Source: Metridium senile
Lineage: Eukaryota; Cnidaria; Anthozoa; Actiniaria; Metridiidae
Length of the DNA: 64,000 nucleotides
Direction of reading: 5' to 3'
Assembly: GCA_949775045.1 (NCBI GenBank)
Contig: OX459096.1
Location: 42,652,379-42,716,378 of the forward strand
How positions within the stretch are numbered: the first letter of the stretch is position 1; the number at the start of each line of letters is the position of its first letter. The notes beneath the pieces were generated by a model. That model searched no databases and was not told where the DNA came from. It saw only the letters and a program-made list of their open reading frames with translations. The translations under genes were made by a program, and so were the position numbers. Shown here in pieces: positions 9,483 to 56,979 of this stretch.

Positions 9483-9643
9483 ATCTACTCTTACTTTTGA
9501 CAACTGGGCGAAGAATGAACCAGATAAAGGCTCCCAAGCAGATGTCAAGGACTGCGTTCTGCTAGTGGTTAACGTTGATAATGGTACATGGGCTACTCAG
9601 AACTGTTCTTACCAACGTACCTATGTGTGTAAGATGAACAGAG
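9483..9643 (+). CDS. receptor exon: C-terminal half of CTLD-1
   Basis: Follows acceptor TTATAG and ends AGA-G before GTTAGT. The residues are a CTLD second half: FDNWAKNEPDKG, then DCVLL, WATQNC and YVCKM, with the conserved Cys of the domain end. The calcium motif reads EPD and the usual WND is WAT, so sugar binding is doubtful. It begins with the last base of a split codon (phase 2). Its missing first half must lie on the far side of the tRNA array and retrotransposon, outside the window. Confidence 0.85.
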
Positions 9644-12600
9644 GTTAGTACAACGTTATCACAAAATGCTTTCATTCGCTGATTAATAAATGATTAATAA
9701 ATCGAGGTTCATTCAAATCGTAATTTCTGACTACGGCTGTGCCATGCGCAGACATGTTGGATAACCCTCTACCTTTCAAGATGGCGCAGGGAACTGTGAA
9801 GGGGAATATTGTGTCTGCGCTTGTGTCGCCAGTGTGAACCATAGGTTTCGATGCCTTCAAAGGGCAATTAACACTGAAAGAAATAAATTTTGAAAGAAAT
9901 ATTGGAATGATATATTCTGTACTTTGTGTACTTTGTGTACTGTAGTCTGTATTCTTTCATAGCAATAATAACTCACATGCTGATGTCATATCTTTTAAGG
10001 GCATGGTCAGTGTAATTCACCCCTTGGTATGCAGACACTGCAAATTTCTGACTCCCAGGTAACTGCGAGCAGTATGATAAATGGTCTCTCACTACCTTCC
10101 CAAGCCAGACTTAACCTCAAACCTTCTAAAACGTCTGTTGGTGCTTGGTGTGCTAAACAAAACGTTAAGGTATGTTCAAAAACTCGACAAAGAAAGATAT
10201 TTAGCTTTTATATACTGATATTTATATATAGCTTTATACAACTTTTATACATTGGTACAACTTTGATACAACTTTCCACCAGTGGGCAACGAAATTGTAC
10301 CGAAATACAAACACAAAGCATTCGCAAGAACATTTATGTCACTAAAAAGGGGTTGTTCAAGGCAGTCATTGGGAAATTGTATGTGTCAGTATAACTTTAA
10401 AAAAGCGCTGTCCTTTGTCATCTTTTGTTTGCTTGTTTTTAGTTTTATCCTATTCTGTTTTGTAAGTGTGTTTGTTTGATTGTTTTTATTTCTATCCAGT
10501 TCTGTTTTGTCAGTCTGTTTGTTTGATTGTTTTTAGTTCTATCCTGTTCTGATTAGTTTTGTCAGTCTGTTTGTTTGTTTGATTAATTTTAGTTATTTTC
10601 TGTTCTGTTTCTGTTTTGTCAGTCTATTTGTTTGATTGATTCAGTTTAGTTCTGTTGTGTTTCTGTTTTGTCAGTCTGTTTGATTGTTTTTAGTTCTATC
10701 CTGTTTTGTTTTGTCAGTCTGCTTGTTTGATTGTTGGCACGTTTGTACGTTTGATTTTTTGTTTGTTCAATTGTGTGTTCGTACGGAAGCGCTGAGGGGA
10801 CTTCAGACTTCAGACTTCAGACTTTTAAAAGACTTAACAGAGACGGGAAGAGGGGGTTCCAATCACAAATCACGGGCCGTTTTTCATAAATTCACGGATC
10901 ACAGAGTTAAGTAAAGCCTTTTCACAAATCTGACAAATATACAAACAACAAGAATGTATGACTTCAGACTTCAGACTTCAGACTTCAGACTTTCGATTTT
11001 GGGCCTGAGAGATCGCGGGCGCAGCATTCAAGATGGCGGAGGCGAATTAACGTACATGTTTGCAGAATTCTTTTTTTCTCACAGTTCGTTTCGTGCGTGA
11101 TATTATTTGCATTAGACTTATGGGTTTCTATTATTTTATTCTTTCTATTATTTGTAGATTATCCATATATTATCGTTGTCAAACAAAACAAGGCTGCTAA
11201 AATTATATTAGATAAACCATTGTACTCGTCAGCTACAGAAGCACTTACTGCTTTAAAGTGGATTCCTCTAGTTAAAAGACGTTTTAAAAGAAGGTGTATT
11301 TTTATTTATAAGTGCCTTCATGGATTAGTAAATAGCCATCTAACATTAGAAACTCAAAAAGAACAACATAATTATAATACTAGAAATAGCGATCACTTAA
11401 GGCTTCCTAAAGTCACTAGAAATTGGGGAAAGCAAAAAACAAGTTATCAATAAGTCAAAGATTTTAATTCGTTAAGTAAAGACATTAGAAATTTAGAAAA
11501 TATTAGTATTTTTAAGAAAAACATTTTCTCTCATAATCAATAAATTTTTAATTTTTAATTATACAATATTCTTAGATTTTATTCGTATTTTATTCTTTAT
11601 ATATATAGCTTATAATATTTTTAATTGTGATTAGTACCTTTATATTTTAGATTATTTATTTTATTTCATTCATATTGTTATTTATTTATTCTTTTATTTT
11701 GAGGTCCTTTTTGAAAATAATGTAAATGAAAAAGTTTTCCTCAATGAAGATTATTATTATTATAAACTGTGTTTTGCCAATATAAAGAAGACCTCCAAAT
11801 AAGCGAAGCGATACGAGGCTACTTTTCTCAAGGATATCAAAATGCCGAAATGACTTGCAATTTTGAAAGAGACTCTATTTACAAAAACAATCATATAAGC
11901 TTGTACATTTGCATTGAACTCCCAACAGTACAAAGATAATAAAAATATAATACAACAACAATAACAGAGTAATACTGAATAATGAGAAATAAAATAAAGA
12001 TAAAAGACGAGAGAACTAGATTAGAGGCACTATCTCTATATAGGCCACTAGAAGTGTTTATAATATAATGTAGTTTTAAGGTAGCATCACTATCAAGATA
12101 GCTTTTTCCTCGACAGTACTCGAACAAAAAATCCAAATTTTAGTTATTTCTGACAAAAAGGAAGGCCAAAATAAGATCAAACTATACCCTCGAGTTTATC
12201 CATCTACTCCTACTACACAAATCTGTGTATTCAAAAATAAATAAATGTCAAGTTACAAGAAGAACTTTACATGTACGTAAAAATATATACCCCATTCGTC
12301 TCCGCCATCTTGTATGTTGCGCCCGCGATCTCTCAAGATCCAAGTCTGAAGTCTGAAGTCTGAAGTCTGAAGTCTGAAGTCTGAAGTCTGAAGTCTGAAG
12401 TCCCCTCAGCGCTTCCGTATGTTCGTTCATATGTGTTGATTGCTGATTTTTTGTTTGTTCATATTTTTATTTGTTCATTCGTTCGTACGTTTGTTTGTTT
12501 AGTTTGTTGATATATGTATATGTTTGCTTGTTTTTTTGTTCATTTGATTGTTCGTTCAAGTTTTTTTTTGTTTACTTGTTTGTTCCTTCTTTTGTTTTGT

Positions 12601-24915: not shown

Positions 24916-24946
<31 letters not shown>

Positions 24947-28000: not shown

Positions 28001-29143
28001 ACGCTCTCTCGTGTTCTCCCAACATCACGCGTGTTTAGATCAGGCTATATAACACGGAAAATCGTCTTCTATTTCTTAAATATAAGACAGAACGCTTATT
28101 TTATCTTATATTATCAAAATTATTGTTGTATTATCTTTTTATTATGACATTGCAGATTAGATCTGAAAAATTCTTTGTTAGTTTCTAATAAAGTTATTAT
28201 TATTATTGTTGGGAAGTTTTGCTGCTTGAATTCTTATTATCCATAGTGCATTTCGGCCTTGATGTGCAACATGCAACAAAAACCTTTGCCAGCCCTTTTT
28301 TGGGCTGTATGCAAAAAGAAAAACACATTCACACAAAAGTAAATGGTTATCCTCTAAGCAGGGATCACAGGAACTTAATGTAATGTGCATCTCCGTTAGA
28401 AATGTGTGTCACTTATGTGACTGCTGATATATTAAAGCGCATGTTTGTACTGCGAGGGAAAGGTATGCCAGATACAGCTCTATCAGTACATGACTGGATA
28501 TACGAATGGATTCATTAAACGTCTATTGTATGTTTTTTTTTAATGATTTATTCTGTAGAAAAACTTGGACGTCTGCTCGAGATGCATGCCGGGCATTCTC
28601 AAACACAAACCTTGTCAGTATTCACGATTCGGCAGAGAACAATTTTGTACGAGGTTTGACCAATACTTCGTATGATGCTTGGATTGGACTTAACGATAGG
28701 GGAATGCTTTCAGGTATACAATTAAAATAATAATATTTTTTGTAAAAGTTTACTAAAATCATCTTTTAACAGCGATGGTAACGAGCGTTTCGGACAGATC
28801 ATGTAGCACAAAGCAAATTGTCACTATGTATAAATAATCCTATATCATCATCATGTGTGACTTTTCAAGTCATTGTAAATTCCATTGTAGATCATCATCA
28901 TCATCATTTCATCATTTGTGTTTTTACCAGGTCATGTCTGGACTGATGGTACTGCAGTACGATTCACTAAGTGGGGACCAGTACAACCTGACAGTCATTC
29001 TGGTCAGCAGCCATGCGTTGTAGTCACGTCAACAGGCAACTGGAATGATGTAGGCTGCTTTTCAACCAGGCCTTATATTTGTAAAATGAAAAGACGTGAG
29101 TCGAATCGAATGTATATAATATTAAGTACATTTCGGCTTTCTC

Positions 29144-35100: not shown

Positions 35101-36463
35101 GGCTTTTGTCCGTTCGCCGCCATAACTACTATTAAAATTAAATATTTGGCACAAATAGGATTTTTATGTTTCATGCCGATATTATTATATGATCAAAGGC
35201 ATGAAAACATAAAAGATTATTACGGTGCAATTTTCTTTGCAAGAAAATTGCGAGACAAGTTGCACAGTTTGTGGCTACACGGTGCAACGGAAACGCAATC
35301 GTTGCAAAAGTAAAAACGAATTCTACTTTTGCAACGATTGCTGCAACTTCAGCAGTTTTCTCGCAACATTTCTTTCAAATAGACCCATTCAGCTTCAATG
35401 TTTATTTTCCTATTTCAAACCACGTGTACATTCTCTTTGGAGTTAATCATTTGTTATGTATAAATATTTTAATACTTGACATAAAATAACAACTCTCAGG
35501 GGAATGCCATGTGGTCTGAAATGTGCAATTTGCATACAGAACTAAAAGGGTCTATTGCGCTGTAGGTTACATGCTGCAATGCATCGTGCAACTTGCATGC
35601 GAGACAAGTTGCAGAGAAAATTGCACCGTGTTATCACGCCTTAACACGTTTGCTTTTTTTATGTTTTATTATTATTCTTTTTCTTTTTTCAGCTGCTCTA
35701 CCGTTAGGGCCAACACCAGGTGGGAAACGAGTTTCGAAACCTTCTAAAGATTTCTCGCATATTTGTCACTAATTTAGGTTTCAGGCCAGGAAATTTATTT
35801 CCAGGAAAGGAACACGTGGCACGTATTTACATATACCATCCACGCAAATGTATATTTATTGTTTTTAATGTAACTTATTATTATCGGATATTTACCAAAT
35901 CGCACATAGTTTTTCATTGTCTGTCCTGTTATTGATCATAGATGGCGTCAAAAAATGTTCAAAACTCAAGTGGAACCACGAGCGTAGCGACATATGTTAA
36001 ATTGATTTAATTTCAATTGTATTTTAATTATCATTGGACATTATCATTGGAAATTAGTGTTTTAAAAAGCTAAAATATTCCCGTTTGATAACATTCAGTA
36101 TCATAGTTTTTATTATTACACTAAGCCTGCAGAATTTTATAGAATTGAATCATTGTATTTTTTCGCATCAAGTGACGAGTTTGATCCCGATTTTCTTTGC
36201 AACCAGTAACTCCAACTCCAAATCCCGACTGTCCCTCACCGTTTGTCAAAGTTGGTACTAACCAGTGCTTGTCGATGTTCTACTCAAAACTGACATGGAA
36301 TGAGGCAAGAGAAGTGTGCAGTAAATATGATGCCGACCTCATAAGCCTACACAGCTTATATGATCAAGGTAACATAAACGCAGTTTACACTTTTCGATTA
36401 ATTGAAGGATAAATTAATGACTAGCTGGCTGGCTGGCTACATGGATTGCCTGTTTGTGAATGG

Positions 36464-36496
<33 letters not shown>

Positions 36497-36522
36497 GGAT
36501 GGATTGATGGATTGGTTTGTGG

Positions 36523-36563
<41 letters not shown>

Positions 36564-51500: not shown

Positions 51501-54500
51501 AAAGAGCATCGTTCTTGTCTTTGATCAAGCACTTTATGCAAAAGCAACAGAGATTCAGTGGAAACATGCTGAAAAGTTTAAAGACCTTGTGCTACGAATG
51601 GGAGTGTTCCATACAGCCTGTACCATGTTGTCTATAATTGGTAAACGTTTCCAGGATGCCGGCCTGCGGGACATTTGTGTTGAATCTGGAGTGGTAGCAG
51701 AAGGATCAGTTTCTGGTGTGCTGGATGGGCGCAGGTATAACCGTGGTGTAAGGTTCCATAAGCTAATGTATGAAGCTCTGATGAGACTCGTTTGGAAAGG
51801 TTTTCTGCCCTGGATCGAAGAAAATCATAAAGATTCCAAAGCTTCAATTAATGGTTTTTTCCATGATCTAGAAGAGATGTATGACAACGTTTGTGAAGAA
51901 GAGTTCAAGAGGAACATGACCAGTGATTCGTTTGCGGAATTTGCCAAAATGTTCGAACTATACATGGACTTTCTTCGACAGTCAAACGGTAAACTCTCAC
52001 AATTCTGGATGTCATACATTGACATGATAGAGATTCTCCTAGGAATGTTAAGAGCGTCTAGAGAAGGTAACTGGGAACTTCATGTATCTTCAATTCGAAG
52101 AATGATCCCATGGTGTTTTGCTTATGACCATTTGAACTATGCTAGATATCTATCTGCATACCTATCTGAAATGTCACACCTCGAAGAAGAGCATCCAGAT
52201 GTTTTGGCGTATTTCAGGTCTGGTGGTTTTTCCGTTCAGCTGGGAGACAAGAACCCCTTTGGAAGAGTACCAGTCGACCAGACTTGTGAGGAGACAGTAA
52301 ACAAAGACACTCAGACACCAGGAGGGACCAAGGGCTTCAGCTTGAAACCAAGAGCCGTGAGTAAATATTATCTCATAGCTGAGTACAGGAGCATATTCAT
52401 GCGTCAGCTCAAGGACATGCTTCATTTGGGTACATCCAACTACCAACACACCGATCTTCAGCCAAGTCGAATTTTGAGAGATGAGGCAGACGTGAAGGCT
52501 GTGATGTCTGTACTGGAGGAAAGCTGGATCAACCCATTCAAACGTGAAACACAAGATCTAGTGTGCCTATCAACAGGAAAACTTGCAACTCAAGAAATAG
52601 AAGAAGACTTGATACGAGCGCAAGATACAGGGGAGCAGTCCTACAGGAGTTTCAGTAAAGACAGACTAGAGTCCGACCCTCCAAAAAGCAAGCTCAATGA
52701 TAAAATGACAAAACTCAAGTTGAAAACGTTTGCTGATCTAGCCAAGAAGATGAAAATCCAAAGACAGACTGGCAAAGAAGTCATACTCATGGCAGATCGA
52801 AAGTTATTTGCACAGATGATCATTATAGCTGAGAACAGGAAGCTTAAGATGAGCGATGTTCTGTGCCACCCACTTGGACCTCTACCCTGGGCTTTAGCTT
52901 CTGCTGATGGGACGCCTCGGAAGACCAATAAGGCATCGCTTGCTAAGGCGCTTAAGAAGGACATTAGAGCAGCAGATGTGATACCACAACCAAGCACAAG
53001 AATCATCGATGGAATGGCAATGGTACAGAAAATAAAAGGCGACCAGAAAACATTTGCTGAAGTAGCTGATTGTGTTTTGTCTATGGCCCTAAGTGAAGGA
53101 ATTGATAGCCAGCGTATTGATGTGGTCTTCGATGTTTACAGAAAAGAATCAATCAAGAATACTGAAAGAGAGAAAAGAGGGTCTGAAAGTGGACACGAAT
53201 TCAGAAATATAAAGGCAGAGCACAAGATCCATCAATGGCGAAAGTTCCTATCCAATTCCCAAAATAAATCACTGCTTATTAAGTTCATCGTTGAAGAGTG
53301 GCAAAAGGAGAACTCCAGAAAGAAATTAGCTGAAAAGATTTTGTTTGTAACCACAGAAGATCGTTGCTTTGCAATAACGGTAGGAGGAGCAACAGAGAGG
53401 GTAGAATTACAGTCAACACAAGAAGAGGCAGACACCAGAATGCTACTTCATGCTGCTCACGCAGCAATGGAAGGGTATGTGACAGTGGTCATATCGTCGG
53501 ATGACACAGACGTGCTCATTCTCTGCTTGGCTTTTCACAGTTGTATCACATGCACATTGTTTGTGAAGTGTAGTTCGCAAAGTCGGACAATGTACATCAA
53601 TGTTTCTGATGTGGCACATATGTTTGGCTCAGACCTTTGTAAATGTCTACCAGGTGTTCATGCCTTCACTGGTTGTGATAGTGTTAGTGCGTTTGCAGGT
53701 AAGGGAAAGCTAACAGCATTGAAGATTGTAAAGAAGAACAGGAGGTTTCAATGCTTGTTCCAGCAGGTTGGAATGCAGTGGGAGCTTTCAGACGAGCTTT
53801 TCACTCAGCTTCAGGAGTTCACTTGCCTCTTGTATAGTGCCAACCCAGGGACTACTGATGTAAATGAGCTACGCTACAGACTGTTCTGTTCAAAGAAAGG
53901 AGGGCTTGACTCACATCAGCTTCCTCCTTGTACAGACTGCCTAAAACTGCACTCTTTAAGAGCTAACTATCAGGCAGCTATCTGGAGAAGGAGCCTACAA
54001 GCGAGTCCAGTTATTCCTCTCCCTATTGGACATGGATGGATACATGAGGAAGATAGCCTTGTTATCAAGTGGATGAGTGGAGAACCAGCCCCGATGGCCG
54101 TCCTGGAATTCCTCTCCTGCACGTGTGCAAGAACATGCAAGCCACCAAACTGCTCATGTATAGCCAATGGTCTAAGGTGTACCGATATGTGCCGGTTGCA
54201 AGAATGTGATAACCGAGCCGAGGAAGAAGTAGCTGACTTTTCTGATGATGATGATGAGACAGATGAAGATTAAGGTGGCTATGAACACTAGCAAGCAATT
54301 TTAGTATAAATGTAGACCTCACAATTGTTTGTGAAGCATGAAAAACTGAATTAGTAAAACAGAACAGTTAAAACTATGACAATAAAGCAATGCTCTTATA
54401 AATATTTCTACAAAGTGAACAATAGGTTGCCATGGCAACGAAATATGTTGTAAGTTATCCTTAAACTTCTTGATTGTGTCTTTTATACCTTTCTTGCACT

Positions 54501-56979
54501 TTCTCGATATGAAGTGTGCAAATGAAGTAAATTTAATTGCAATAAACACTTAATCATTTAAGATAAGGAAATGTTTAATAATACTGATGACGTCATAAAA
54601 CCACGTGATAAAAGCAGAAAAGCTACCGTTTCAGCATTGCTATCACCCATAATCATAAACTACAGGCTCCAAGGATTAAAAAGATATATGATAGCATTTG
54701 TCCCTCCGAGTGGTACCGAAACACATATTTGAGGGGTCTTGGCCCATGGACTAATACATTTAATGGCAAATGCAATGATGTTATCTTCGCAGGTCACTGC
54801 CTTGTACAGCAAAGAAGATGAGGCTTCGTTAGCTTTCGAGCGAGTGCAGATTATAAGATTCAGGTAAGTTACTCTAGGGTTATATAATACAAGGTTTCAC
54901 GTTCCAGTAACATTGGCGGTCCGCCTGCTGTCACTCACATGAAATTTAAACATAAAGAGCTCAACAGACATGTATTCACTTTCTTATGGATAGAGGTCCA
55001 GTTAAACTCTCATGACATGGGAAAGAACATCAGATCAAACAAACCAAAGTCACATTTGATCGATGCCCGAGTCGGGACTTAAACCTATTTCACAGTGGAG
55101 ATCGGCGGAGAGGCGGCGAGCTGTAACCCACCTACGCCACTGCGACAAGCGACACCGCACAGTGTCATCTTGTCCAACACACCAGTCCAATCCAGACGGA
55201 ACTACTGCGACATGTAGATTGACGCAGTTACATGCAACACACAACCTGAAATAGCTATACAAAATTGACATTGACATGTTATTATTATTACAGATCTGGG
55301 AGCGTTATTGTCGATTTCAACATCACATTCTTTGCGGACATTGCTAAAGGTGCCAATGTTATGCAGCGAGTCAAAGATACTGTCAACAATGGTTCCCTTG
55401 GAAACCTTACAGTTGACCCAGACTCCCTTACCATCGAACAGATAAGTAAGTTATCAGACATCCTTAAGCTTAGTGTAGTATTATAACTGTATGTTTAACA
55501 CTTCAGATCCAAACACACTCCCAGTATACGCTCACTATCAGCACAACATATTACCCATAGACAGGAAAAAGCCTTTCAATTGCAGTTTCTCAGATTTTAT
55601 AAATAAAAATAAATGAATCATTAATGTTTTAATTTACGACGAAATACAGGGAGTCCTACCAAATCTCCCTAGCTATTCGACATACTCACTACCCCTATGT
55701 TAATATTTTAGCACACATCACTTCTCACATGTAGATTTTTGCGGAGGGAGGAAATCCTTAGAGAACAACACACCGAACAAACTATATTCACTTGTTGCAC
55801 GAGTCGGGAATCGAACCCAGGTTACAGTGATGAAAGTCTAACGCTCTCATCCATGTCATTCAGTTTTTTAATTTAAATTTTTCATTTTCCTATTATCAAA
55901 AGAACCACCAGGTGGAGATACTAGTGCACAAAAACAAGGTAAGCCAACCAACAAACCAATGAAACCCAACCACCAACCAACAAACCAACGGACCCCAACC
56001 ATCAACCAACAAACCAATGAAACCCAGCCACCAACCAACAAACCAATGAAACCCAACCACCAACCACCAAACAAATGAAACCCAGCCACCAACCAACAAA
56101 CAAATGAAACCCAACCACTAACCAACAAACCAATGAAACCCACCCACCAACCAACAAACCAATGAAACACAACAACCAACCAGCAAACCAATGAACCCCA
56201 TCCACCAACCAACAAACCAATGAAACCCAGCCACCAACGTTAACAAACAAACCTATGAAACCCAACCACCAACCAATGAAACCCAACCACCAACCAACAA
56301 ACCAATGAAACCCAACCACCAAACCAATAAAACCCAACCACCAACGTACCAACAAACCGACCCTCCTCCACCAACAACCAACAACCAACAACCAACAACC
56401 AACAAACCAATGAAACCCAACCACCAACCAACAAACCGACCCTCCCCCACCAACAACCAACAACCAACAACCAACGGACCCCAATTACCACCCAATTAAC
56501 CAATTGACCTAGTCACTAACCAACAAAACAACCAACTACACCACCATGCGCCCCACAATACAACCAATTGACCGACTTACCAACCAACCAACCGAAAACA
56601 ACTAACCAACCGAAAACAACCAACCAACCAATAAACAAAAACATTAACAGAAAGTTAAAAAACTATCGAGCTTGAGTGGTAAAATCTGCCGTCCATGAGA
56701 CATGTTATTTGCATTACGCTATGTGGTTAATCTTGTTAATACAAAGAATGTTGTTTAGGTGCTAAGGGTGGACTATCAGCTGGTGCCAAGGCCGGTATCA
56801 GTATTGTAGTCATACTAGTTATAGCTAGTGGGGTGTTGCTTGGTTTGTGGTGGTTCCGTAAGAAAAGAGCTCAAGCAGCTGGGGACTCGGTCTTGAAACA
56901 TCAACAGTTTGATAACCCCATACACTTCTCATCTAAAGCGTACGACTTTGATGATCCAGTGGATTCATCAACTGCATGA
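9483..56979 (+). CDS. giant mosaic lectin receptor, type I membrane protein (3' 47 exons)
   Basis: Forty-seven exons with consensus splice sites join into one frame of 7114 nt (about 2370 residues) ending at TGA 56977-56979. The order in the visible part is half CTLD (1-54), F5/8C (54-214), CTLD (214-350), LamG-like (362-581), CTLD (581-716), SUEL lectin (727-820), CTLDs at 820-962, 974-1104, 1123-1259, 1274-1414, 1423-1561 and 1569-1702, F5/8C at 1702-1852, 1852-2002 and 2002-2150, SEA (2175-2286), transmembrane helix and tail (2298-2370). The start codon and signal peptide lie before the window. CTLD, F5/8C and SUEL modules bind sugars, lipids or matrix, so a cell-surface recognition or adhesion receptor is likely. 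The multi-CTLD plan recalls the mannose receptor family, but that family has neither discoidin, SUEL nor SEA modules. Ligand and role are unknown. Confidence 0.9.
10000..14288 (+). CDS. receptor exons: F5/8 type C (discoidin) domain 1
   Basis: Three exons, 10000-10169, 13474-13638 and 14144-14288, with intron phases 1-0-0-1. The domain opens with CNSPLGMQ and DSQVTASS, continues with EYLQIDFGAVRKVTHLAVQG and FYIRYGNNGQNF, and closes with FIRFYPLQW and CMRTEIYGCDG. These are the standard blocks of the family, including the terminal disulphide pair. Such domains bind phospholipid, glycan or collagen through loops at one end of the barrel. Intron 1 (3.3 kb) holds a LINE fragment and minisatellites. 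Confidence 0.93.
10431..10735 (+). repeat. degenerate minisatellite, about 55-bp unit
   Basis: Repeats of TTTTGTCAGTCTGTTTG followed by TTTTTAGTTCTATCCTG, five to six imperfect copies, directly before the inverted-repeat element. Confidence 0.75.
10782..12419. mobile_element. inverted-repeat element with (ACTTCAG)n termini and a nested LINE end
   Basis: The left end reads TACGGAAGCGCTGAGGGG, then (ACTTCAG)n; the right end is the reverse complement ending CCCCTCAGCGCTTCCGTA. A second inverted block, GAGATCGCGGGCGC with AAGATGGCGGA (11003-11047), is mirrored at 12294-12335. The heptamer repeat is therefore part of the terminal inverted repeats. The interior carries the 3' end of a LINE. No target duplication is clear. 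Confidence 0.7.
11150..11770 (+). pseudogene. 3' end of a CR1/L2-like LINE (RT C-terminus)
   Basis: The frame to a stop at 11453 reads KQNKAAKIILD, ALKWIPLVKRRF, IYKCLHGLVN and YNTRNSDHLRLP. This is the typical C-terminal end of non-LTR reverse transcriptases, past the catalytic region. An AT-rich 3' stretch follows, ending in (ATT)n at 11748-11763, the usual microsatellite tail of such LINEs. It is 5' truncated. Confidence 0.8.
12595..13060 (+). repeat. 16-bp minisatellite TTTGTTTGTTTGTTCT
   Basis: About 28 units. The three plus-strand frames and two minus-strand frames are open only because the unit lacks stops; there is no coding signal. Confidence 0.92.
13222..13432. mobile_element. small fold-back element (MITE-like)
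   Basis: CTTGACTG...AGCCTCG is mirrored by CGAGGCT...CAGTCAAG, and CCGTATCGAAATATGG by CCATATTTTGATTCGG. The arms are imperfect, about 90 bp each. Confidence 0.6.
14445..15480 (+). repeat. (GACT)n-rich minisatellite split by a TTAA element
   Basis: Units such as CATACAGGCTAGCTGACTGA and CACTGATCACTGACTGA occur at 14445-14789 and resume at 15256-15480. The gap is the inverted-repeat element at 14794-15251, so the array predates that insertion. Confidence 0.85.
14794..15251. mobile_element. 458-bp inverted-repeat element flanked by TTAA
   Basis: Ends AGTGCACCTGA and TCAGGTGCACT with TTAA on both sides (14790-14793, 15252-15255). The inverted arms continue inward over about 150 bp (GACGTCA, TTTGCATTTTCAGATTTCAAAT). 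TTAA target duplication is used by piggyBac and Kolobok-type transposases; this copy has no transposase. Confidence 0.8.
15544..17212 (+). CDS. receptor exons: CTLD-2
   Basis: Exons 15544-15633, 16278-16499 and 17117-17212, all separated by phase-1 introns. The first acceptor is placed at TTTAG 15543 because only that joins the frame, giving VTSTKCRAGW. The domain then shows CYQYN, ASCTSQGGDLLSI, FWIGLND, FQWSD, DIDCGQYRPYICK. The calcium sites are lost: there is no EPN/QPD (SGYPKD instead) and WND is replaced by WRDID. It is therefore more likely a protein-binding or structural CTLD. Confidence 0.9.
15674..15850 (+). repeat. 10-bp minisatellite TTTTGCTTGC
   Basis: About 17 units with two variants; it begins 40 bp after the donor of the first CTLD-2 exon. 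Confidence 0.93.
15949..16232. repeat. interspersed element with inverted ends and ACCCTAAAAGGTACG repeats
   Basis: A G-run (15953-15970) precedes GAATAGGGGTGCTCGA, which is mirrored by TCGAGCACCCCTATCC at about 16190-16210, with CCCCGGGG at both margins. Inside, the motif ACCCTAAAAGGTACG recurs in degenerate form. Confidence 0.6.
17213..17605. other. receptor intron without recognised features except the tRNA fossil
   Basis: AT-rich intron. CGTCCCCAGACGTTTCGTCCCC (17240) resembles the head of the 53-bp minisatellite at 19322. Nothing coding is seen. Confidence 0.5.
17357..17398 (-). pseudogene. fossil 5' half of a tRNA-Asp repeat unit
   Basis: The plus-strand stretch AATACTCACCACAATACTAA followed by GAGGATCT matches the D-arm/acceptor half of the array unit with about 7 mismatches in 42. 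The T-arm half and the anticodon stem partner are missing, so it is not a tRNA gene. Confidence 0.7.
17606..17641 (+). CDS. receptor micro-exon: 12-residue linker
   Basis: A 36-nt exon between phase-1 introns (TTTTTACAG before, GTAAGT after) encodes a Ser/Thr/Lys-rich spacer ASVHTKKYSMTA between CTLD-2 and the LamG-like module. It keeps the frame and is supported mainly by its splice sites and phase. Confidence 0.75.
17941..19135 (+). CDS. receptor exons: LamG-like (concanavalin-type) domain
   Basis: Exons 17941-18424 and 18963-19135 (phases 1-2-1), 219 residues. Signature: YWPLNGLVNGNVLG at the start, ISVSINVNL, GFAIYIEQGQVKV, then EWHHVALTW and LRLYVDGKQ, closing with YYIRSLGVWKRMLDPSEV. 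This is the laminin-G/pentraxin-like beta sandwich (LamG-like jelly roll). The WHHVALTW-DG block is diagnostic. Binding properties cannot be read from the sequence. The following intron is filled by a 53-bp minisatellite. Confidence 0.9.
18425..18962. other. receptor intron inside the LamG-like module
   Basis: 538 bp with good splice sites. TTTTCTCATGCATCTGTACT near 18510 resembles sequence after the tRNA-like SINE head at 26640. Nothing else is recognised. Confidence 0.5.
19323..20990 (+). repeat. 53-bp minisatellite filling the LamG/CTLD-3 intron
   Basis: The unit contains CCTACTAGTAGTGATGTATC and ACCAGTGGTCCCCTTTGTTC; the length is 53 bp, with 10-bp expansions of TTTGTCCCC and TTCTATTCA. 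There are about 30 copies. CTACTAGTAG is itself a palindrome. Confidence 0.95.
21106..21962 (+). CDS. receptor exons: CTLD-3 (QPD type, intact calcium motifs)
   Basis: Exons 21106-21303 and 21756-21962, with one phase-1 intron directly after WIG. Key residues: CSLGWKEFGQYCYQF, NCQNQGGDLVSI, AWIG, WEWSDGS, QPDN and GRWNDILC. QPD plus WND is the galactose/GalNAc-type calcium-binding set in known CTLDs, so this module is predicted to bind sugar. Confidence 0.93.
21304..21755. other. CTLD-3 intron with short hairpin
   Basis: Inverted arms AATAATTGAGAGTCATCAAC (21601-21620) and its complement (21669-21688) surround a 48-bp AT-rich loop; a small MITE-like hairpin. The rest is unremarkable. Confidence 0.65.
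21963..23001. other. 1-kb receptor intron, no gene recognised
   Basis: Contains local repeats of AATCGGACAGT at 22128-22190 and of CCAATCA. CTCGAATCTGATTGG at 22072 recurs at 42178, suggesting an old interspersed repeat. Confidence 0.5.
23002..23034 (+). CDS. receptor micro-exon: 11-residue linker
   Basis: A 33-nt exon with strong sites (TTTTTCCAG, GTAAGA), phase 1 on both sides, encodes VIPTVGSTPSL between CTLD-3 and the SUEL module. Confidence 0.75.
   Translation, partial: LYLQSEVLLH
23363..23663. mobile_element. 300-bp inverted-repeat element
   Basis: TGGTTTTCATTAACCCGTGAA (left) and its near complement TTCACGGGTTAACGAAAACCA (right) are about 25-bp terminal repeats. GACGTTTCGATCAAG inside resembles tails of other elements here. 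Confidence 0.6.
23709..23987 (+). CDS. receptor exon: SUEL-type (galactose/rhamnose-binding) lectin domain
   Basis: A single phase 1-1 exon encodes 93 residues with the family pattern: IICERSLDSLNCPS, then the ANYGR-like motif AKYGRSD, CLVNVTAKIRNQCDG, and the closing DPC motif KDPCMYVRKYLDVSYKC. The Cys spacing fits rhamnose-binding egg lectins and the RBL domain of latrophilins. It probably binds L-rhamnose or D-galactose. The acceptor is CTTTCAAG, the only one that keeps the frame from the preceding linker. Confidence 0.92.
24360..25410 (+). repeat. (ATC)n-rich minisatellite, about 120-bp unit
   Basis: Blocks built of CATCATCACC, AGCATTACCAATACAATAAT and CACTACTGACACCGCC recur at about 119-122 bp (24891, 25013, 25132, 25253, 25372), with an older block before. 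A stretch at 24060-24200 resembles the MITE at 26264. Confidence 0.85.
25440..26249 (+). CDS. receptor exons: CTLD-4
   Basis: Exons 25440-25587 and 25972-26249 (phases 1-2-1). Residues include CPPGWQRNRDGTVCYG, SCKKSGGELASIHS, DVWIGLTDQG, YRWDDKSP, GQPNDRN, YWVDDDC and AYICKK. The first calcium motif reads QPN and the second is VDD instead of WND, so calcium binding is possible but altered. The intron within is a (GTCA)n array. The split at SIHS-GW is the same place and phase as in CTLD-7. Confidence 0.9.
25600..25905 (+). repeat. (GTCA)n array in the CTLD-4 intron
   Basis: Pure (GTCA)n from about 25784 to 25902, preceded by degenerate copies. Confidence 0.93.
26264..26468. mobile_element. 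205-bp MITE with 24-bp perfect inverted repeats
   Basis: CGGCTGAGTAGATACAACTC at the left and its exact complement at the right end (26444-26463). No coding. Confidence 0.8.
26560..26680 (+). mobile_element. tRNA-derived SINE head (candidate)
   Basis: TGGTGTAGTGGTTAAC is an A-box type sequence and GGGTTCGAGTT a B-box type sequence, 34 bp apart as in tRNA. The acceptor stem does not pair, so it is a SINE head or pseudogene. Confidence 0.5.
26753..26788 (+). CDS. receptor micro-exon: Pro/Thr linker
   Basis: A 36-nt phase 1-1 exon encodes AGNTPPPLRPTT, a probable O-glycosylated stalk piece between CTLD-4 and CTLD-5. Confidence 0.75.
26981..27246. mobile_element. 266-bp inverted-repeat element
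   Basis: Starts AGAGCGTCTCCGTATAACCC and ends with the matching GGGTTATACGAAAACGCTCT; the arms run about 60 bp inward (CACTTTTAAAAT, CATATGTGTGAAAT). Confidence 0.8.
27424..29095 (+). CDS. receptor exons: CTLD-5 (QPD type)
   Basis: Exons 27424-27493, 28559-28713 and 28931-29095 (phases 1-2-1-1). The module reads GACPNGWKTYISGCYKVF, TWTSARDACRAF, NLVSIHDSAEN, AWIGLND, VWTDGT, QPDSHSG, GNWNDVGC and PYICKMK. QPD and WND are both intact, predicting galactose-type sugar binding. Its first intron holds a 570-bp near-perfect hairpin. Confidence 0.92.
27511..28082. mobile_element. 570-bp near-perfect fold-back element
   Basis: About 105 bp at each end (27511-27615 and 27977-28082) are almost exact inverted copies, from ATTTAAGAAATAGAAGACG to GCACGAGCCGTTAGGCG. 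Inside, a second nested inverted pair (AGGCTAAATCGGCATTTTAA) surrounds a third (TTATAAAATAATTTAGATAG). The transcript of the intron would fold into a long hairpin. Confidence 0.88.
28083..28558. other. rest of CTLD-5 intron 1
   Basis: TTTCTAATAAAGTTATTATTATTATTG at 28180-28206 looks like the tail of a truncated LINE. No other feature is seen. Confidence 0.45.
29147..29217 (+). repeat. (TTG)n(TTC)n microsatellite
   Basis: About 9 TTG followed by about 12 TTC triplets, 50 bp after the last CTLD-5 exon. Confidence 0.95.
29393..29449 (+). CDS. receptor micro-exon: Pro/Thr-rich linker
   Basis: A 57-nt phase 1-1 exon encodes PSIKVPTTRPTTAPPPPTA, a mucin-like spacer between CTLD-5 and CTLD-6. Confidence 0.8.
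29662..31569 (+). CDS. receptor exons: CTLD-6 (EPN type)
   Basis: Exons 29662-29848 and 31349-31569 (phases 1-2-1). Residues: TCDSGWLYWNQMCYLF, WFNARSACRKTGGDLVSIL, YYIWIGLNDLG, YKWSDGSP, WREPNDWNGQEDC, GQWNDNQC and YPYICKK. EPN with WND is the mannose/glucose-type set, the only one in the visible gene. The donor is GTAAGT at 29849, one codon step after an alternative GTAGTA, and is required by phase. The intron is a 16-bp minisatellite of more than 1 kb. Confidence 0.92.
29996..31070 (+). repeat. 16-bp minisatellite TATTTGTTTGTTGTTG, about 65 copies
   Basis: Very homogeneous array in the CTLD-6 intron. It leaves all three plus frames open but lies between two halves of a domain and has no coding signal. 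Confidence 0.96.
31701..31745 (+). CDS. receptor micro-exon: Pro/Thr linker
   Basis: A 45-nt phase 1-1 exon encodes NTFTPPTTIAPTPGP. Confidence 0.78.
31746..32318. other. receptor intron, nothing recognised
   Basis: AT-rich with scattered GATGAT runs; no gene or repeat family identified. Confidence 0.5.
32319..34996 (+). CDS. receptor exons: CTLD-7
   Basis: Exons 32319-32475 and 34734-34996 (phases 1-2-1). Residues: KCDPGWINYDKRCYKF, WSKARDSCQ, LLSVNNQ, FWIGLNDKH, FTWINNDP, THWRKGQPVRN, DCVDLW and RYICEA. The QPD/EPN position reads QPV and WND is absent, so the calcium-dependent sugar site is lost. A 0.9-kb TTAA-flanked inverted-repeat element lies in the intron. Confidence 0.9.
32943..33845. 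mobile_element. 903-bp inverted-repeat element flanked by TTAA
   Basis: TTAA at 32939-32942 and 33846-33849; termini GGCCCAAGCAAACGCACGCA and its near complement GCTTGCGTTTTCACGGGCC. The interior is studded with CCAACATTGTTGG-like 13-mers, themselves palindromic. There is no transposase; it is a non-autonomous TTAA-type element. Confidence 0.82.
33850..34733. other. rest of CTLD-7 intron
   Basis: Includes a C-run (34508-34528) and an (ATT)n stretch (34564-34586). No gene seen. Confidence 0.5.
35216..35640. mobile_element. 425-bp inverted-repeat element with TTGCAAC motifs
   Basis: ACGGTGCAATTTTC near the left end and GAAAATTGCACCGT near the right are inverted copies, as are CGAGACAAGTTGCA segments. 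A central hairpin (GCAATCGTTGCAAAAGTA) lies at 35296-35350. Confidence 0.7.
35693..35719 (+). CDS. receptor micro-exon: 9-residue linker
   Basis: A 27-nt phase 1-1 exon encodes PALPLGPTP. The acceptor TTTTTTCAG is strong; the donor GTGGGA is weak. It is called because it keeps frame and matches the linker pattern elsewhere. Confidence 0.6.
36207..37024 (+). CDS. receptor exons: CTLD-8
   Basis: Exons 36207-36368 and 36773-37024, phase 1 throughout. Residues: NPDCPSPFVKV, QCLSMFYSKLTWNEAREVC, DADLISLHS, NVWIGLSRE, FKWSDLS, HWSKGQPGAPG, CVLAS, RWTVADC and GFMCQIWK. QPG replaces QPD and WTV replaces WND, so calcium-dependent sugar binding is unlikely. The second exon starts at CAG 36772, the only acceptor that keeps the frame. 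A (TTGA)n array fills the intron. Confidence 0.88.
36452..36740 (+). repeat. (TTGA)n array in the CTLD-8 intron
   Basis: (ATTG)n with local higher units around GGATTGGTTTGTGG; it fills most of the intron. Confidence 0.92.
37201..37224 (+). CDS. receptor micro-exon: 8-residue linker
   Basis: A 24-nt phase 1-1 exon encodes GDQHVTPV, with good acceptor TAACCAACAG and donor GTAAGT. It is the shortest exon called. Confidence 0.6.
37225..37757. other. intron before the SINE
   Basis: No feature recognised. Confidence 0.4.
37758..38155 (+). mobile_element. full-length tRNA-derived SINE
   Basis: The head has A box TGGTCTAGTGG and B box GGTTCGATTCC. A central domain follows (TTGTGTCCTTGGGCAAGACA), then TAAAGCGCTATGAG and GCGCTATATAAAT near the 3' end. 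This order is typical of metazoan V-/DC-type SINEs with a conserved core; the exact family is not settled. Confidence 0.8.
38156..38673. other. intron between the SINE and CTLD-9
   Basis: No feature recognised beyond the strong acceptor TAATTTCAG. Confidence 0.4.
38674..41578 (+). CDS. receptor exons: CTLD-9
   Basis: Exons 38674-38877 and 41384-41578 with one phase-1 intron after WIG, the same place as in CTLD-3. Residues: TCLPGWKKFDKSCYLF, WSTARYLCNKQGGDLVSIL, WVWIG, GLNDRSFEQGYVWSDGSP, NQPNDNQG, NCVDMW, GDWTDRVC and YICKAK. QPN and WTD are near-canonical calcium residues, so binding is possible. The intron is a 2.4-kb hexanucleotide array in which the upstream reading frame stays open. Confidence 0.92.
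38886..41345 (+). repeat. 2.4-kb hexanucleotide array (CAGTCA)n with CAGTTG variants
   Basis: Starts eight bases into the CTLD-9 intron and ends 38 bp before its acceptor. Variant hexamers form higher-order blocks of a few hundred bp; the marker CACAATCAGTCATAACC recurs near 39796, 40130, 40330 and 40884. A hexamer with no stop in any frame leaves long open frames on both strands (Ser-His, Thr-Val, Gln-Ser and Cys-Asp repeats); these are read as artefacts. Confidence 0.96.
41579..42584. other. intron between CTLD-9 and F5/8C domain 2
   Basis: Contains a locally GC-rich stretch (41790-42060) of unknown origin with two ATACTTACC motifs, and CTCGAATCTGATTGG at 42178. No supported gene. Confidence 0.45.
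42585..43968 (+). CDS. receptor exons: F5/8 type C domain 2
   Basis: Exons 42585-42742, 43189-43338 and 43827-43968 (phases 1-0-0-1, 150 residues). Blocks: ECSSPLGMSSG, WCAADKDKTPYFEVDL, IAKIGVQGVM, FILSYAEYKGQW, RFIRIQPKTW and CAKFEFYGCVL. It follows CTLD-9 with no linker exon. Confidence 0.92.
43339..43826. other. F5/8C domain 2 intron
   Basis: A (CAT)n run at 43490-43512. On the minus strand AAGATGGCGGATTCC (43590) opens a short frame, judged chance or a repeat remnant. Confidence 0.45.
44256..45429 (+). CDS. receptor exons: F5/8 type C domain 3
   Basis: Exons 44256-44383, 44537-44713 and 45285-45429, same phase pattern. Blocks: ECQKPLGIQS, GRGWCPL, WLQLTWPGFAKRITKIGTWG, RYKLAFSDNGQVF, QYFRIYPLAG and CLRFEIYGCAS. 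Divergence from domain 2 shows the duplication is not recent. The last intron contains a SINE-like fragment. Confidence 0.92.
45035..45190 (+). mobile_element. SINE body fragment
   Basis: CGTCTTCACAATAAGGACCGTAGGTCCCG followed by GGGACGTAAAAGAACCCACA matches the order of the body of the SINE at 37880-37920 and related elements; the tRNA head is missing. Confidence 0.6.
45516..47133 (+). CDS. receptor exons: F5/8 type C domain 4
   Basis: Exons 45516-45673, 46153-46293 and 46989-47133, same phase pattern. Blocks: GCIDPLGLETG, RGWCAAPTDKKPFLRVSLG, RIRKVSTQGS, VEFRPQKW and CLRVEIFGCIP. The middle exon diverges most from the family but keeps frame and splice sites. Confidence 0.9.
46294..46988. 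other. F5/8C domain 4 intron
   Basis: Segments GTCGGGCTAGT (46381) and GTCGGGCC...GCCCGAC (46523-46542) suggest a small interspersed repeat. No gene. Confidence 0.4.
47134..48044. other. introns flanking the stalk exon
   Basis: Apart from the stalk exon at 47605-47679, no feature is seen. CATCATTCGATGAACATCTTCAG (47922) resembles tails of old elements. Confidence 0.4.
47605..47679 (+). CDS. receptor exon: Pro/Thr/Ser stalk
   Basis: A 75-nt phase 1-1 exon encodes 25 residues rich in Pro, Thr and Ser (VVPATKRP, IAPTGSVIPTTS) between the last F5/8C domain and the SEA domain; probably an O-glycosylated stalk. Confidence 0.78.
48045..55445 (+). CDS. receptor exons: SEA domain with GSVIV cleavage motif
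   Basis: Exons 48045-48154, 54793-54863 and 55294-55445 (phases 1-0-2-1, 111 residues). The fold signature is YKVTFKVTNVQW, VTALYSKEDEASLAFERVQI, then RSGSVIVDFNITF and the last helices. In mucins and several receptors the sequence G-S-V-V/I-V between these strands is cut by the domain itself, leaving two tightly bound chains; GSVIV fits. The exon join falls just before the cleavage motif. The first intron (6.6 kb) contains the nested nuclease-like gene. Confidence 0.88.
48603..54273 (+). CDS. FEN1/PIN-like nuclease with zinc modules and CXC motif (family not named)
   Basis: Two exons, 48603-48621 and 49619-54273, give 1557 residues. The start ATG is in AAGATGGCGG; the 19-nt exon encodes MAESMH and half a codon, followed by GTAAGT, and the large exon follows TTTTAACAG. 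Without this exon the large frame has no ATG at its head. Residues 17-74 (CIIHC...YHRKC) and 123-185 (CIFC...YHRSCYREYT) look like two related zinc modules. From about 1130 the order matches the FEN1/XPG fold: IIDGMAMVQ (D1137), VVFDVYRKESIKNTERE (D1178), QEEADTRMLLHA (E1276, D1278), SSDDTDVLIL (D1301, D1304) and TGCDSVSAFAGKGK (D1360). The end has a Cys-rich CXC-like stretch (about 1507-1538) and an acidic tail. I do not recognise a named family; it may be a domesticated or mobile-element protein. The large intronless exon and placement inside another gene suit arrival by insertion. Confidence 0.82.
48780..49566. repeat. imperfect 780-bp palindrome filling the nested gene's intron
   Basis: The left arm reads through AGTTACTAAAAGG, repeats of GACCTACAAT, CTCACCAACG and AAGCTGGAATTATTTGTTA. 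The right arm gives the reverse complements TAACAAATAATTCCAGCTT, AGGTCATTGTAGG and CCTTTTAGTAACT in mirrored order. The centre is near 49170. The arms are clearly related but diverged. It is a fold-back or MITE-like structure between a 19-nt exon and a 4.6-kb exon. Confidence 0.8.
54381..54386 (+). terminator. candidate polyadenylation signal of the nested gene
   Basis: AATAAA lies 108 nt after the stop; a second AATAAA is at about 54540. Either would end the nested transcript before the next receptor exon at 54793. Confidence 0.55.
54960..55215 (-). mobile_element. tRNA-derived SINE (candidate)
   Basis: On the minus strand GTGGCGTAGGTGGGTTAC and TTTAAGTCCCGACTCGG lie about 45 bp apart like degenerate A and B boxes, followed by GTTCTTTCCCATGTCATGAG. 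The family is not known to me. Confidence 0.5.
55690..55858 (-). mobile_element. tRNA-derived SINE with conserved body
   Basis: On the minus strand GAGAGCGTTAGACTTTC and a clean B box GGTTCGATTCC are followed by TGTTGTTCTCTAAGGATTTC and CCTCCGCAAAAATCTACA, a body layout I know from invertebrate SINEs. Confidence 0.6.
55903..55938 (+). CDS. receptor micro-exon: juxtamembrane linker
   Basis: A 36-nt phase 1-1 exon encodes KPPGGDTSAQKQ between the SEA domain and the transmembrane exon. The donor GTAAGC runs straight into the CCAAC-rich minisatellite. Confidence 0.75.
55939..56640 (+). repeat. CCAAC-rich minisatellite, about 30-bp unit
   Basis: The unit is AACCAACAAACCAATGAAACCCAACCACC with many variants. 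The donor GTAAGCCAACC of the preceding exon is its first unit. Confidence 0.93.
56759..56979 (+). CDS. receptor terminal exon: transmembrane helix and cytoplasmic tail
   Basis: After AKGGLSAGAKAG comes a hydrophobic helix (ISIVVILVIASGVLLGLWWF), a basic stop-transfer RKKR and a tail of about 39 residues. The tail has FDNPIHF, close to the FxNPxY endocytosis signal with Phe for Tyr, and acidic YDFDDP. The protein ends at TGA 56977-56979. Topology is type I, with all lectin domains outside the cell. Confidence 0.92.

What the first reader, a model, noticed from the sequence alone, without database searches (positions are those of the whole stretch)
9483..56979. Undescribed receptor architecture: nine CTLDs with discoidin, LamG, SUEL and SEA modules on one membrane protein
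All 47 exons join in frame, with sizes and phases that close exactly at every module. The result is a type I receptor with at least four different classes of ligand-binding module and a self-cleaving stalk. Known multi-CTLD receptors (mannose receptor family) do not carry SUEL, discoidin and SEA modules together. A role in self/non-self recognition, symbiont or microbe capture, or cell adhesion is possible; that is inference.
Basis: partly seen in the sequence, partly recalled or inferred. Interest (0 to 1): 0.88.

Follow-up and report, generated by a model that had tools for sequence, protein, structure and literature searches.

The report
Ancient multi-lectin receptor in a cnidarian
This genome, likely a sea anemone's, carries a gene predicted to make a giant membrane receptor with eleven C-type lectin domains and four other kinds of module, in the same order as in a stony coral and an octocoral; the order of its lectin domains also follows that in several bilaterian receptors, so it is likely an old relative of the vertebrate mannose receptor that would capture and take in sugar-coated material.

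Summary
The 47 exons join without a stop into 2,364 aa; Pfam finds C-type lectin (CTLD), discoidin, LamG, SUEL and SEA domains. But the window cuts off the 5' end: two and a half more CTLDs lie upstream, beyond a 2,500-N stretch, giving 11. A head-to-head paralogue, gene B, has the same module string. The architecture is not unique: Nematostella, Pocillopora and the octocoral Dendronephthya share the identical string, under names such as 'uncharacterized' or 'macrophage mannose receptor 1-like'. Fish and amphioxus homologues also join CTLDs, SUEL and discoidin; a Fugu gene of this type was predicted in 2004. SEA appeared only in cnidarian-type hits. New here: the CTLDs align in order with bilaterian receptors (0 of 2,000 shuffles in 5 of 7 groups; weaker on domain cores), and the tail keeps the FxN core of the mannose-receptor uptake motif, mostly without its tyrosine. 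Best reading: an endocytic glycan receptor of the mannose-receptor lineage, older than the cnidarian-bilaterian split. Uptake, ligands and SEA self-cleavage are untested.

The parts
9483..9643 (+). exon 1 of the window model: C-terminal half of CTLD3 (its N-half is upstream of the window, at about -8565 to -8310)
10000..14288 (+). discoidin domain 1 (exons 2-4: 10000-10169, 13474-13638, 14144-14288)
15544..17212 (+). CTLD4 (exons 5-7: 15544-15633, 16278-16499, 17117-17212); EPN/WND motif degenerate (YPK, WRD)
17606..17641 (+). linker exon 8
17941..19135 (+). LamG / concanavalin-like domain (exons 9-10: 17941-18424, 18963-19135)
21106..21953 (+). CTLD5 (exons 11-12: 21106-21303, 21756-21953); QPD + WND
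23002..23034 (+). linker exon 13
23709..23987 (+). SUEL (rhamnose/galactose-binding type) domain, one exon (14), with YGR and KYL
25440..26249 (+). CTLD6 (exons 15-16: 25440-25587, 25972-26249)
26753..26788 (+). linker exon 17
27424..29095 (+). CTLD7 (exons 18-20: 27424-27493, 28559-28713, 28931-29095); QPD + WND
29393..29449 (+). linker exon 21
29662..31569 (+). CTLD8 (exons 22-23: 29662-29848, 31349-31569); EPN + WND in all four species compared
31701..31745 (+). linker exon 24
32319..34996 (+). CTLD9 (exons 25-26: 32319-32475, 34734-34996); degenerate
35693..35719 (+). linker exon 27
36207..37024 (+). CTLD10 (exons 28-29: 36207-36368, 36773-37024); degenerate
37201..37224 (+). linker exon 30
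38674..41578 (+). CTLD11 (exons 31-32: 38674-38877, 41384-41578); QPN + WTD
42585..43968 (+). discoidin domain 2 (exons 33-35: 42585-42742, 43189-43338, 43827-43968)
44256..45429 (+). discoidin domain 3 (exons 36-38: 44256-44383, 44537-44713, 45285-45429)
45516..47133 (+). discoidin domain 4 (exons 39-41: 45516-45673, 46153-46293, 46989-47133)
47605..47679 (+). linker exon 42
48045..55445 (+). SEA domain (exons 43-45: 48045-48154, 54793-54863, 55294-55445) with GSVIV at the place of the MUC1 GSVVV self-cleavage site; a TIR element sits in the intron after exon 43
55912..55938 (+). linker exon 46
56759..56979 (+). exon 47: transmembrane helix and cytoplasmic tail with FDNPIHF, stop codon

Best explanation
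The gene is predicted to encode a type I membrane receptor of at least 2,732 residues (11 CTLDs, 4 discoidin domains, one LamG, one SUEL, one SEA, one TM helix, short tail) that is likely a cnidarian representative of the lineage that gave rise to the vertebrate mannose-receptor family, and that would work as an endocytic glycan receptor. Shown by calls: one open spliced frame; the module order, identical in Nematostella, Pocillopora and Dendronephthya; a head-to-head paralogue with the same order; CTLD order that follows bilaterian receptors in most tests; an FxNP core in the tail. Inferred: CTLDs 1, 2 and 8 (EPN+WND) would bind mannose-like sugars with calcium and CTLDs 5 and 7 (QPD+WND) galactose-like sugars; SUEL, LamG and discoidin modules would widen the ligand range; the SEA domain would cut itself at G|SVIV into two chains held together, so that the ectodomain can be released; and the tail motif would engage clathrin adaptors and carry ligands to endosomes.
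For: Gene. Upstream CTLDs. Same module string CCCDCLCSCCCCCCDDDE in the window gene, P0001, P0003, P0009 and in gene B (joined matches). One-mRNA support from relatives: P0010 (2,236 aa) and P0014 (2,598 aa) are open frames on contigs of only 8,435 and 7,953 bases, which fits cDNA rather than intron-rich genes (contig type not stated, so inference). CTLD order: comparison of 11 cnidarian position profiles with bilaterian receptors gives 1>1, 2>2, 3>3, 4>5, 6>7, 7>8, 8>9, 9>10, 10>11, 11>12 as the recurrent path (fish lack 2>2 and echinoderms 7>8), 0 of 2,000 shuffles for fish, lophotrochozoan-DDD, mollusc/nemertean, echinoderm/hemichordate and amphioxus sets. Fish CTLDs 5-12 are the best matches of MRC1 CTLDs 1-8 in 7 of 8 (two MRC1 proteins). 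Tail: F.N..[YF] in 88 of 99 non-cnidarian homologues with a clear TM and tail, 2.0 expected by shuffling; FxNP in 9 of 9 cnidarian-type tails. The mannose-receptor FENTLY motif mediates clathrin-dependent uptake (PMC8551360 passage). CTLD8's top solved matches by whole-chain score are PLA2R1, a yolk-sac IgY receptor, LY75, MRC2 and MRC1 (that score adds up several CTLDs per chain, which favours such receptors).
Against: No expression, localisation, ligand or uptake data. The critical tyrosine of the motif is H or S in 7 of 9 cnidarian-type tails, so uptake may be weak or use another adaptor. The vertebrate family's ricin-B and FN2 domains are absent. CTLD order was not significant in 3 of 18 core-only comparisons (hexacoral vs fish 358/2,000, hexacoral vs lamprey 367, window gene vs lamprey 453), nor against arthropods (p 0.13) and only weakly against MRC1 (p 0.034). 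The path is unsure around CTLD4-5: core-only tests pair cnidarian 4 with bilaterian 5 in 12 of 18 and cnidarian 5 with bilaterian 5 in 5 of 18. Single-domain best hits were significantly in order in only 5 of 27 bilaterian proteins and 1 of 8 vertebrate ones. The SUEL tree neither supports nor rejects a shared origin of the receptor SUELs. The N-terminal exons are linked only by homology across a 2,500-N stretch.
Confidence: 0.6

Rival explanations
1. Independent assembly: cnidarians and bilaterians each strung CTLDs, SUEL and discoidin modules together by exon shuffling, and the similarity of order is chance or parallel selection.
For: All 25 module boundaries are phase 1, the hallmark of shuffled exons; SUEL sits after CTLD5 by count in both, but the commoner path pairs cnidarian CTLD4 with bilaterian 5 and CTLD6 with 7, so the SUEL slot may not be the same; SUEL tree inconclusive; the LamG-type hit of amphioxus P0019 lies at a different place.
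Against: CTLD order beats all 2,000 shuffles in five of seven group comparisons; forward order beats reversed order in 17 of 18 core-only comparisons; shared FxN tail core.
Confidence: 0.2
2. A cell-adhesion or matrix receptor (or allorecognition molecule): the modules bind neighbouring cells or matrix and the tail motif is a docking site, not an uptake signal.
For: Tyrosine of the uptake motif is missing in most cnidarian-type tails; discoidin and LamG modules are common in adhesion proteins (general knowledge).
Against: Modules are conserved in order between hexacorals and an octocoral and none stands out as hypervariable: identities of 48-75% to Nematostella and 28-50% to the octocoral, unlike what strong diversifying selection would give; no within-species data.
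Confidence: 0.17
3. A sheddable decoy: the SEA domain releases the lectin ectodomain into mucus to coat microbes, and the membrane form is only a precursor.
For: GS[VI] at the cleavage place in 9 of 9 SEA-bearing proteins examined; mannose receptor is also shed (PMC8551360 passages).
Against: The tail is conserved as well, from Nematostella to octocoral, which a mere precursor would not need.
Confidence: 0.12
4. Gene-model artefact: two or more neighbouring genes read as one.
For: No cDNA from this species; the upstream part crosses a 2,500-N stretch with a 3,537-base exact duplicate beside it.
Against: The same string in three other species and in gene B; probable transcript contigs P0010 and P0014; one TM near the C-terminus and no internal stop.
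Confidence: 0.03

Closest known systems
Nematostella vectensis LOC5521688 and LOC5521691 (uncharacterized), Pocillopora 'macrophage mannose receptor 1-like', Dendronephthya LOC114519267
   Same: Homologues with 55, 51, 44 and 33% identity over 99-100% of the window's part; same order of modules (LOC5521691 model lacks the first CTLD); tree pairs the window gene with LOC5521688 (99/98) and gene B with LOC5521691 (100/100)
   Different: Sequence only; none has a described function in the papers I searched
Fish, lamprey and amphioxus 'macrophage mannose receptor 1-like' (Fugu 'DEC-205-FUSE', Zelensky & Gready 2004, PMC514892, passages read)
   Same: Large CTLD array with discoidin and SUEL inside it (SUEL seen here, not mentioned in the passages), short tail, F.N..[YF] in most; order of CTLDs colinear in most tests, lamprey excepted
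   Different: 12 CTLDs in the 42 proteins of the commonest string (CCCCC-S-D-CCCCCCC) and in amphioxus P0019; LCCL domain in both that I Pfam-scanned (P0019, P0025); no SEA, no three C-terminal discoidins
Vertebrate mannose-receptor family (MRC1, MRC2, LY75, PLA2R1)
   Same: Tandem CTLDs, one TM, short tail with FxN uptake motif; CTLD8's top solved matches belong to this family
   Different: No ricin-B or FN2 domain found here; 11 CTLDs instead of 8 or 10; extra modules; tyrosine of the motif replaced
LePin of Xenia symbiotic cells (PMC7332420, passages read)
   Same: Cnidarian multi-domain lectin
   Different: Described with H- and C-type lectin and Kazal domains, a different architecture

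Membership tests
Mannose-receptor family (group VI: MRC1, MRC2, LY75, PLA2R1) | tandem array of 8 or more CTLDs | tested here: met
   11 CTLDs
Mannose-receptor family (group VI: MRC1, MRC2, LY75, PLA2R1) | N-terminal ricin-B-like cysteine-rich domain | tested here: not met
   not found in the window part; absent from the Pfam list of Nematostella orthologue P0001, whose sequence starts with a hydrophobic leader then a CTLD. The upstream exons of the window gene were not Pfam-scanned and its first exon was not found
Mannose-receptor family (group VI: MRC1, MRC2, LY75, PLA2R1) | fibronectin type II domain | tested here: not met
   PF00040 absent in the window part and from P0001's list
Mannose-receptor family (group VI: MRC1, MRC2, LY75, PLA2R1) | cytoplasmic uptake motif (bulky residue)-x-N-x-x-Y | tested here: inconclusive
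   FxNP core kept in 9 of 9 cnidarian-type tails, but the Y position is Y or F in only 2 of 9; FDNPIHF in the window gene. A Tyr-to-His change in one lizard gene of the MRC1L-B clade is noted in PMC4229073
Mannose-receptor family (group VI: MRC1, MRC2, LY75, PLA2R1) | CTLD-by-CTLD correspondence in order | tested here: inconclusive
   direct test against two 8-CTLD proteins p 0.034; via larger bilaterian receptors 0 of 2,000 in five of seven groups, 3 of 18 not significant without flanks
Fish DEC-205-FUSE type (CTLD5-SUEL-discoidin-LCCL-CTLD7) | SUEL and discoidin inside the CTLD array | tested here: met
   both inside the array, though discoidin is after CTLD3, not after SUEL
Fish DEC-205-FUSE type (CTLD5-SUEL-discoidin-LCCL-CTLD7) | LCCL domain | tested here: not met
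   no PF03815 in the window part or in P0001's list
Calcium-dependent sugar-binding CTLDs | EPN or QPD plus WND (specificities recalled) | tested here: met
   CTLD1, 2, 8 EPN+WND in all four species; CTLD5 and 7 QPD+WND in the window gene; 3, 4, 9, 10 degenerate in it; 6 and 11 partial
SUEL (rhamnose-binding type) lectins | Pfam SUEL profile and YGR / KYL motifs (motifs recalled) | tested here: met
   E 1.3e-19; best solved match a rhamnose-binding lectin, whole-chain E 2.4e-31
Self-cleaving SEA domains | G|S site as in MUC1 GSVVV | tested here: met
   GSVIV; GS[VI] in 9 of 9 SEA-bearing proteins; MUC1 site in PMC4456727 passages
Self-cleaving SEA domains | actual cleavage | not testable with these tools
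   needs protein

The most novel reading that the evidence does not exclude
The mannose-receptor family did not arise in vertebrates: its CTLD array, domain by domain, and its tail motif already existed in the common ancestor of cnidarians and bilaterians as an 11-12-CTLD endocytic lectin receptor that also carried discoidin and possibly SUEL modules. Tetrapod MRC1 would be the last eight CTLDs of that ancestor.
Probability: 0.62. Interest if true: 0.7.

Novelty: new variant of a known kind. Interest (0 to 1): 0.6.

Why it matters
Cnidarian lectin receptors are proposed gatekeepers for microbes and algal symbionts, but most are catalogued as 'C-type lectins' without a link to vertebrate receptors. 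A conserved, full-length candidate with a likely uptake tail is a concrete target. [quoted passage not shown]

Tried and rejected
Rejected: gene fusion artefact (same string in three other species and gene B). Rejected: 'unique architecture' (database homologues). Rejected: LamG as an ancestral module shared with amphioxus; in P0019 the Laminin_G_3 hit overlaps a pentraxin hit at residues 1933-2120. Single-domain best hits gave weak order for bilaterians (of 32 proteins listed, the five cnidarian-type ones are fully in order; of the other 27, 5 have shuffle p below 0.05), so I moved to profile comparison. SUEL tree of 29 rows: uninformative (p-AU 0.11 for all receptor SUELs as one clade, 0.166 cnidarian, 0.057 bilaterian). 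A search with the C-terminal part of P0001 (65 hits) returned mostly other discoidin proteins and no new full-length relative. The signal-peptide scan for the window gene gave only one poor candidate. PMC9478142 was opened for the SEA motif and the terms were not found. Structure prediction was not tried: the spliced domains are mostly not contiguous in the window and the full-length homologues exceed the size limit.

Rows left out: 13 of 121 proteins had no clear TM or tail and were excluded (listed there). rest on the best 120 of 746 hits. In one search groups were restricted to proteins with a fixed number of CTLDs (7 cnidarian-type, 42 fish-type, 10, 7, 4, 6, 1 and 2); the 42, the 10 and the 6 include three, three and one proteins from unnamed sources, placed by their string.

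Full report
The other two frames of the same joined exons hold 183 and 111 stops. Of 46 introns 31 are phase 1, 9 phase 0 and 6 phase 2, and all 25 borders between modules or linkers are phase 1. Pfam finds Lectin_C (3+2+4 stretches), F5_F8_type_C (1+3), Laminin_G_3, SUEL_Lectin and SEA above the curated cut-offs. Further hits to UL45, Laminin_G_2, F5_F8_type_C_2, Xlink and VSP overlap these domains or the TM and are taken as cross-matches. The genome that holds the window is available (G000, window at C2:42,652,379-42,716,378) and is unnamed.

THE GENE IS LONGER THAN THE WINDOW. Upstream DNA contains, on the same strand and in order, CTLD1 (one exon, about -47830 to -47429), a linker (-46562 to -46515), CTLD2 (two exons, -24034 to -23162) and the N-half of CTLD3 (-8565 to -8310), whose C-half is exon 1 of the window; Nematostella LOC5521688 aligns across them without a break in order. 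The joined protein is 2,732 aa without signal peptide. A 2,500-N stretch (assembly gap or withheld; not known) ends at the window start, and the CTLD3 exon lies in a 3,537-base exact duplicate 5,354 bases apart whose second copy ends beside that stretch, probably an assembly artefact (inference).

A PARALOGUE. On the opposite strand, head to head (first CTLD exon at about 42,599,050), a second gene (B) runs to about 42,541,239 with matches to every kind of module in order. Its joined matches give the same string, CCCDCLCSCCCCCCDDDE, and its 11 CTLDs each score best on the same cnidarian position. I did not make an exon model of B, and its joined row contains some intron read-through. In B the second half of CTLD6, CTLD7 and the start of CTLD8 lie in one open stretch of 948 bases, so B has lost introns there relative to the window gene. 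A maximum-likelihood tree of 12 proteins pairs the window gene with Nematostella LOC5521688 (99/98) and B with LOC5521691 (100/100), with the corals outside (drawn with a midpoint root): the duplication is older than the split from Nematostella and younger than that from the stony corals sampled. This is why I call the organism likely a sea anemone.

NOT UNIQUE. Of 746 database hits I examined the best 120. Using profiles built from the window gene's own modules, the window gene, Nematostella P0001, Pocillopora P0003 and the octocoral Dendronephthya P0009 have the identical string of 18 modules. Other Acropora, Montipora and Stylophora proteins and three unnamed-source ones (P0008, P0010, P0014) have it with differences: the Acropora models P0004 and P0006 lack SUEL, P0005 has one extra discoidin, P0014 lacks SEA, and several are incomplete. 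The named ones are called 'uncharacterized' or 'macrophage mannose receptor 1(-like)' (or 'unnamed protein product'). P0010 and P0014 are long open frames on contigs scarcely longer than the frames, as cDNA would be (inference from lengths). By the same profiles 42 proteins (fish and a lamprey where named, three unnamed) read CCCCC-S-D-CCCCCCC; of five amphioxus proteins three start CCC-D-CC-S-D, one CC-D-CC-S-D and P0019 reads CCC-D-CC-S-C7; ten read CCCCC-DDD-CCCCCCC (six molluscs, one annelid, three unnamed); five of six named crustaceans have 14 C; two reptile MRC1 have 8 C. SEA was found in 9 of 121 proteins, all in the cnidarian-type set.

CTLD ORDER. For each CTLD position I built a cnidarian profile (7 proteins) and compared it with each position of bilaterian groups. 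A monotone alignment of the centred score matrix beat all 2,000 column shuffles for the fish, lophotrochozoan-DDD, mollusc/nemertean, echinoderm/hemichordate and amphioxus (one protein) sets; arthropods p 0.13, MRC1 p 0.034. The recurrent path pairs cnidarian 1, 2, 3, 4 with bilaterian 1, 2, 3, 5 and cnidarian 6 to 11 with 7 to 12; cnidarian 5 and bilaterian 4 and 6 have weak or no partners. Repeated with domain cores only and with subsets (18 comparisons), 12 of 18 had at most 22 of 2,000 shuffles as good, 3 more had 58 to 98, and 3 were not significant (hexacorals vs fish 358, vs lamprey 367, window gene vs lamprey 453); fish against the three non-hexacoral proteins gave 10. Cnidarian 4 pairs with bilaterian 5 in 12 of 18 and cnidarian 5 with bilaterian 5 in 5 of 18; in the second case the SUEL slot would be the same on both sides, in the first it would be off by one. 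The true order scored higher than the reversed order in 17 of 18. So correspondence is well supported with amphioxus and, more unevenly, with lophotrochozoans, echinoderms and fish, and not with the lamprey. In the fish-MRC1 comparison the best fish positions for MRC1 CTLDs 1-8 are 5, 6, 7, 8, 12, 10, 11, 12, which makes MRC1 the last eight of the larger array. The groups are related to each other, so these are not independent tests.

THE TAIL. Among 99 non-cnidarian homologues with a clear TM and tail, 88 carry F.N..[YF] in the tail, against 2.0 expected when tails are shuffled. All 9 cnidarian-type tails carry FxNP followed by two residues and, in 8 of 9, an aromatic residue (FDNPIHF here; FENPMSF in the octocoral; FHNPIYF in Acropora), but the tyrosine position holds Y or F in only 2 of 9. 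Gene B also has FDNPIHF. In mammals FENTLY drives clathrin-dependent uptake and the overlapping YF pair sorts the receptor to early endosomes (PMC8551360, passages); PMC4229073 (passages) writes the motif as bulky-x-N-x-x-Y and notes a Tyr-to-His change in one lizard gene. The function of the cnidarian version is therefore inferred, not shown.

LIGANDS AND STALK. Aligned CTLDs of four species: 1, 2 and 8 have EPN and WND in all; 5 is QPD+WND in the hexacorals and EPN+WSD in the octocoral; 7 is QPD or QPN with WND, WGD or WSD; 11 is EPN or QPN with WND or WTD; 6 is QPN, EPN or QPD with WVD, WQD or WKD; 3, 4, 9 and 10 are degenerate (isolated EPD, APD and QPD matches aside). That EPN means mannose-type and QPD galactose-type specificity is recalled knowledge. 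SUEL is closest to solved rhamnose-binding lectins. The SEA domain matches solved SEA-bearing chains only weakly (best E 0.00096) but Pfam firmly, with GS[VI] at the MUC1-like site in 9 of 9 SEA-bearing proteins.

LITERATURE. Ten searches of the open library found no description of this architecture. Zelensky & Gready 2004 (PMC514892, passages) predicted a Fugu gene with 5 CTLDs, LCCL, discoidin and 7-10 CTLDs, without cDNA and without human orthologue; the present hits show that such proteins are predicted in many fish. A cnidarian survey (PMC8260672, passages) lists domains found with CTLD but not, in the passages seen, this combination; an actiniarian survey (PMC5094078, passages) counts CTLD genes without architectures. 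An Acropora palmata study (PMC7580945, passages) reports a 'macrophage mannose receptor 1' among differentially expressed lectins in disease, and a nudibranch study (PMC12205514, passages) a 'macrophage mannose receptor 1' in cells that take up nematocysts; I cannot say whether either is this kind of gene. I also saw passages of PMC11788884, PMC4456727 and PMC7332420. Of the other papers named in the searches I saw the listing and start of the abstract only.

VERDICT. A real, large, conserved receptor gene; not a new class, but a lineage with no described function that ties cnidarian and vertebrate lectin receptors together. Function is inferred throughout.

Noticed in passing
window 5018-9402, - strand: 29 tandem tRNA-Asp (GTC) genes in a 151-base repeat, all found by both ARAGORN and Rfam, sitting inside the intron between CTLD3's two exons and on the opposite strand.
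   Followed up: partly
window 48226-54758: A DNA-transposon-like element with terminal inverted repeats of 132 and 141 bases (alignment score 59, best of 200 shuffles 32) and one intact 1,569-aa frame (49564-54273) without a Pfam match at E 0.01, inside the SEA-domain intron of the receptor.
   Followed up: partly
upstream of window, -11405 to -7869 and 5,354 bases further on: A 3,537-base exact duplicate holding the N-half exon of CTLD3, its second copy ending beside a 2,500-N stretch at the window start; probably an assembly duplicate, but a true duplicated exon cassette is not excluded.
   Followed up: partly
G000:C2 about 42,562,987-42,565,389, - strand (gene B): Gene B reads through the second half of CTLD6, CTLD7 and the start of CTLD8 in one open stretch, and the rest of CTLD8 with CTLD9 in another, where the window gene has introns: local intron loss, perhaps by partial cDNA-mediated gene conversion.
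   Followed up: partly
window 38917-41327: 2.4 kb of an imperfect TCACAG hexamer array inside the intron that splits CTLD11.
   Followed up: no
window 58172-58731 and 60500-61042: Two arrays of one 70-base unit in the 3' flank of the gene.
   Followed up: no
window 1761-3334, - strand: Long open stretches of 291 and 320 aa on the minus strand upstream of the tRNA array, not identified.
   Followed up: no
G000:C3 15.74-15.82 Mb and C7 9.24-9.58 Mb: Clusters of SUEL domains (C3) and of CTLDs that are mostly whole in one open frame (C7) elsewhere in this genome.
   Followed up: no
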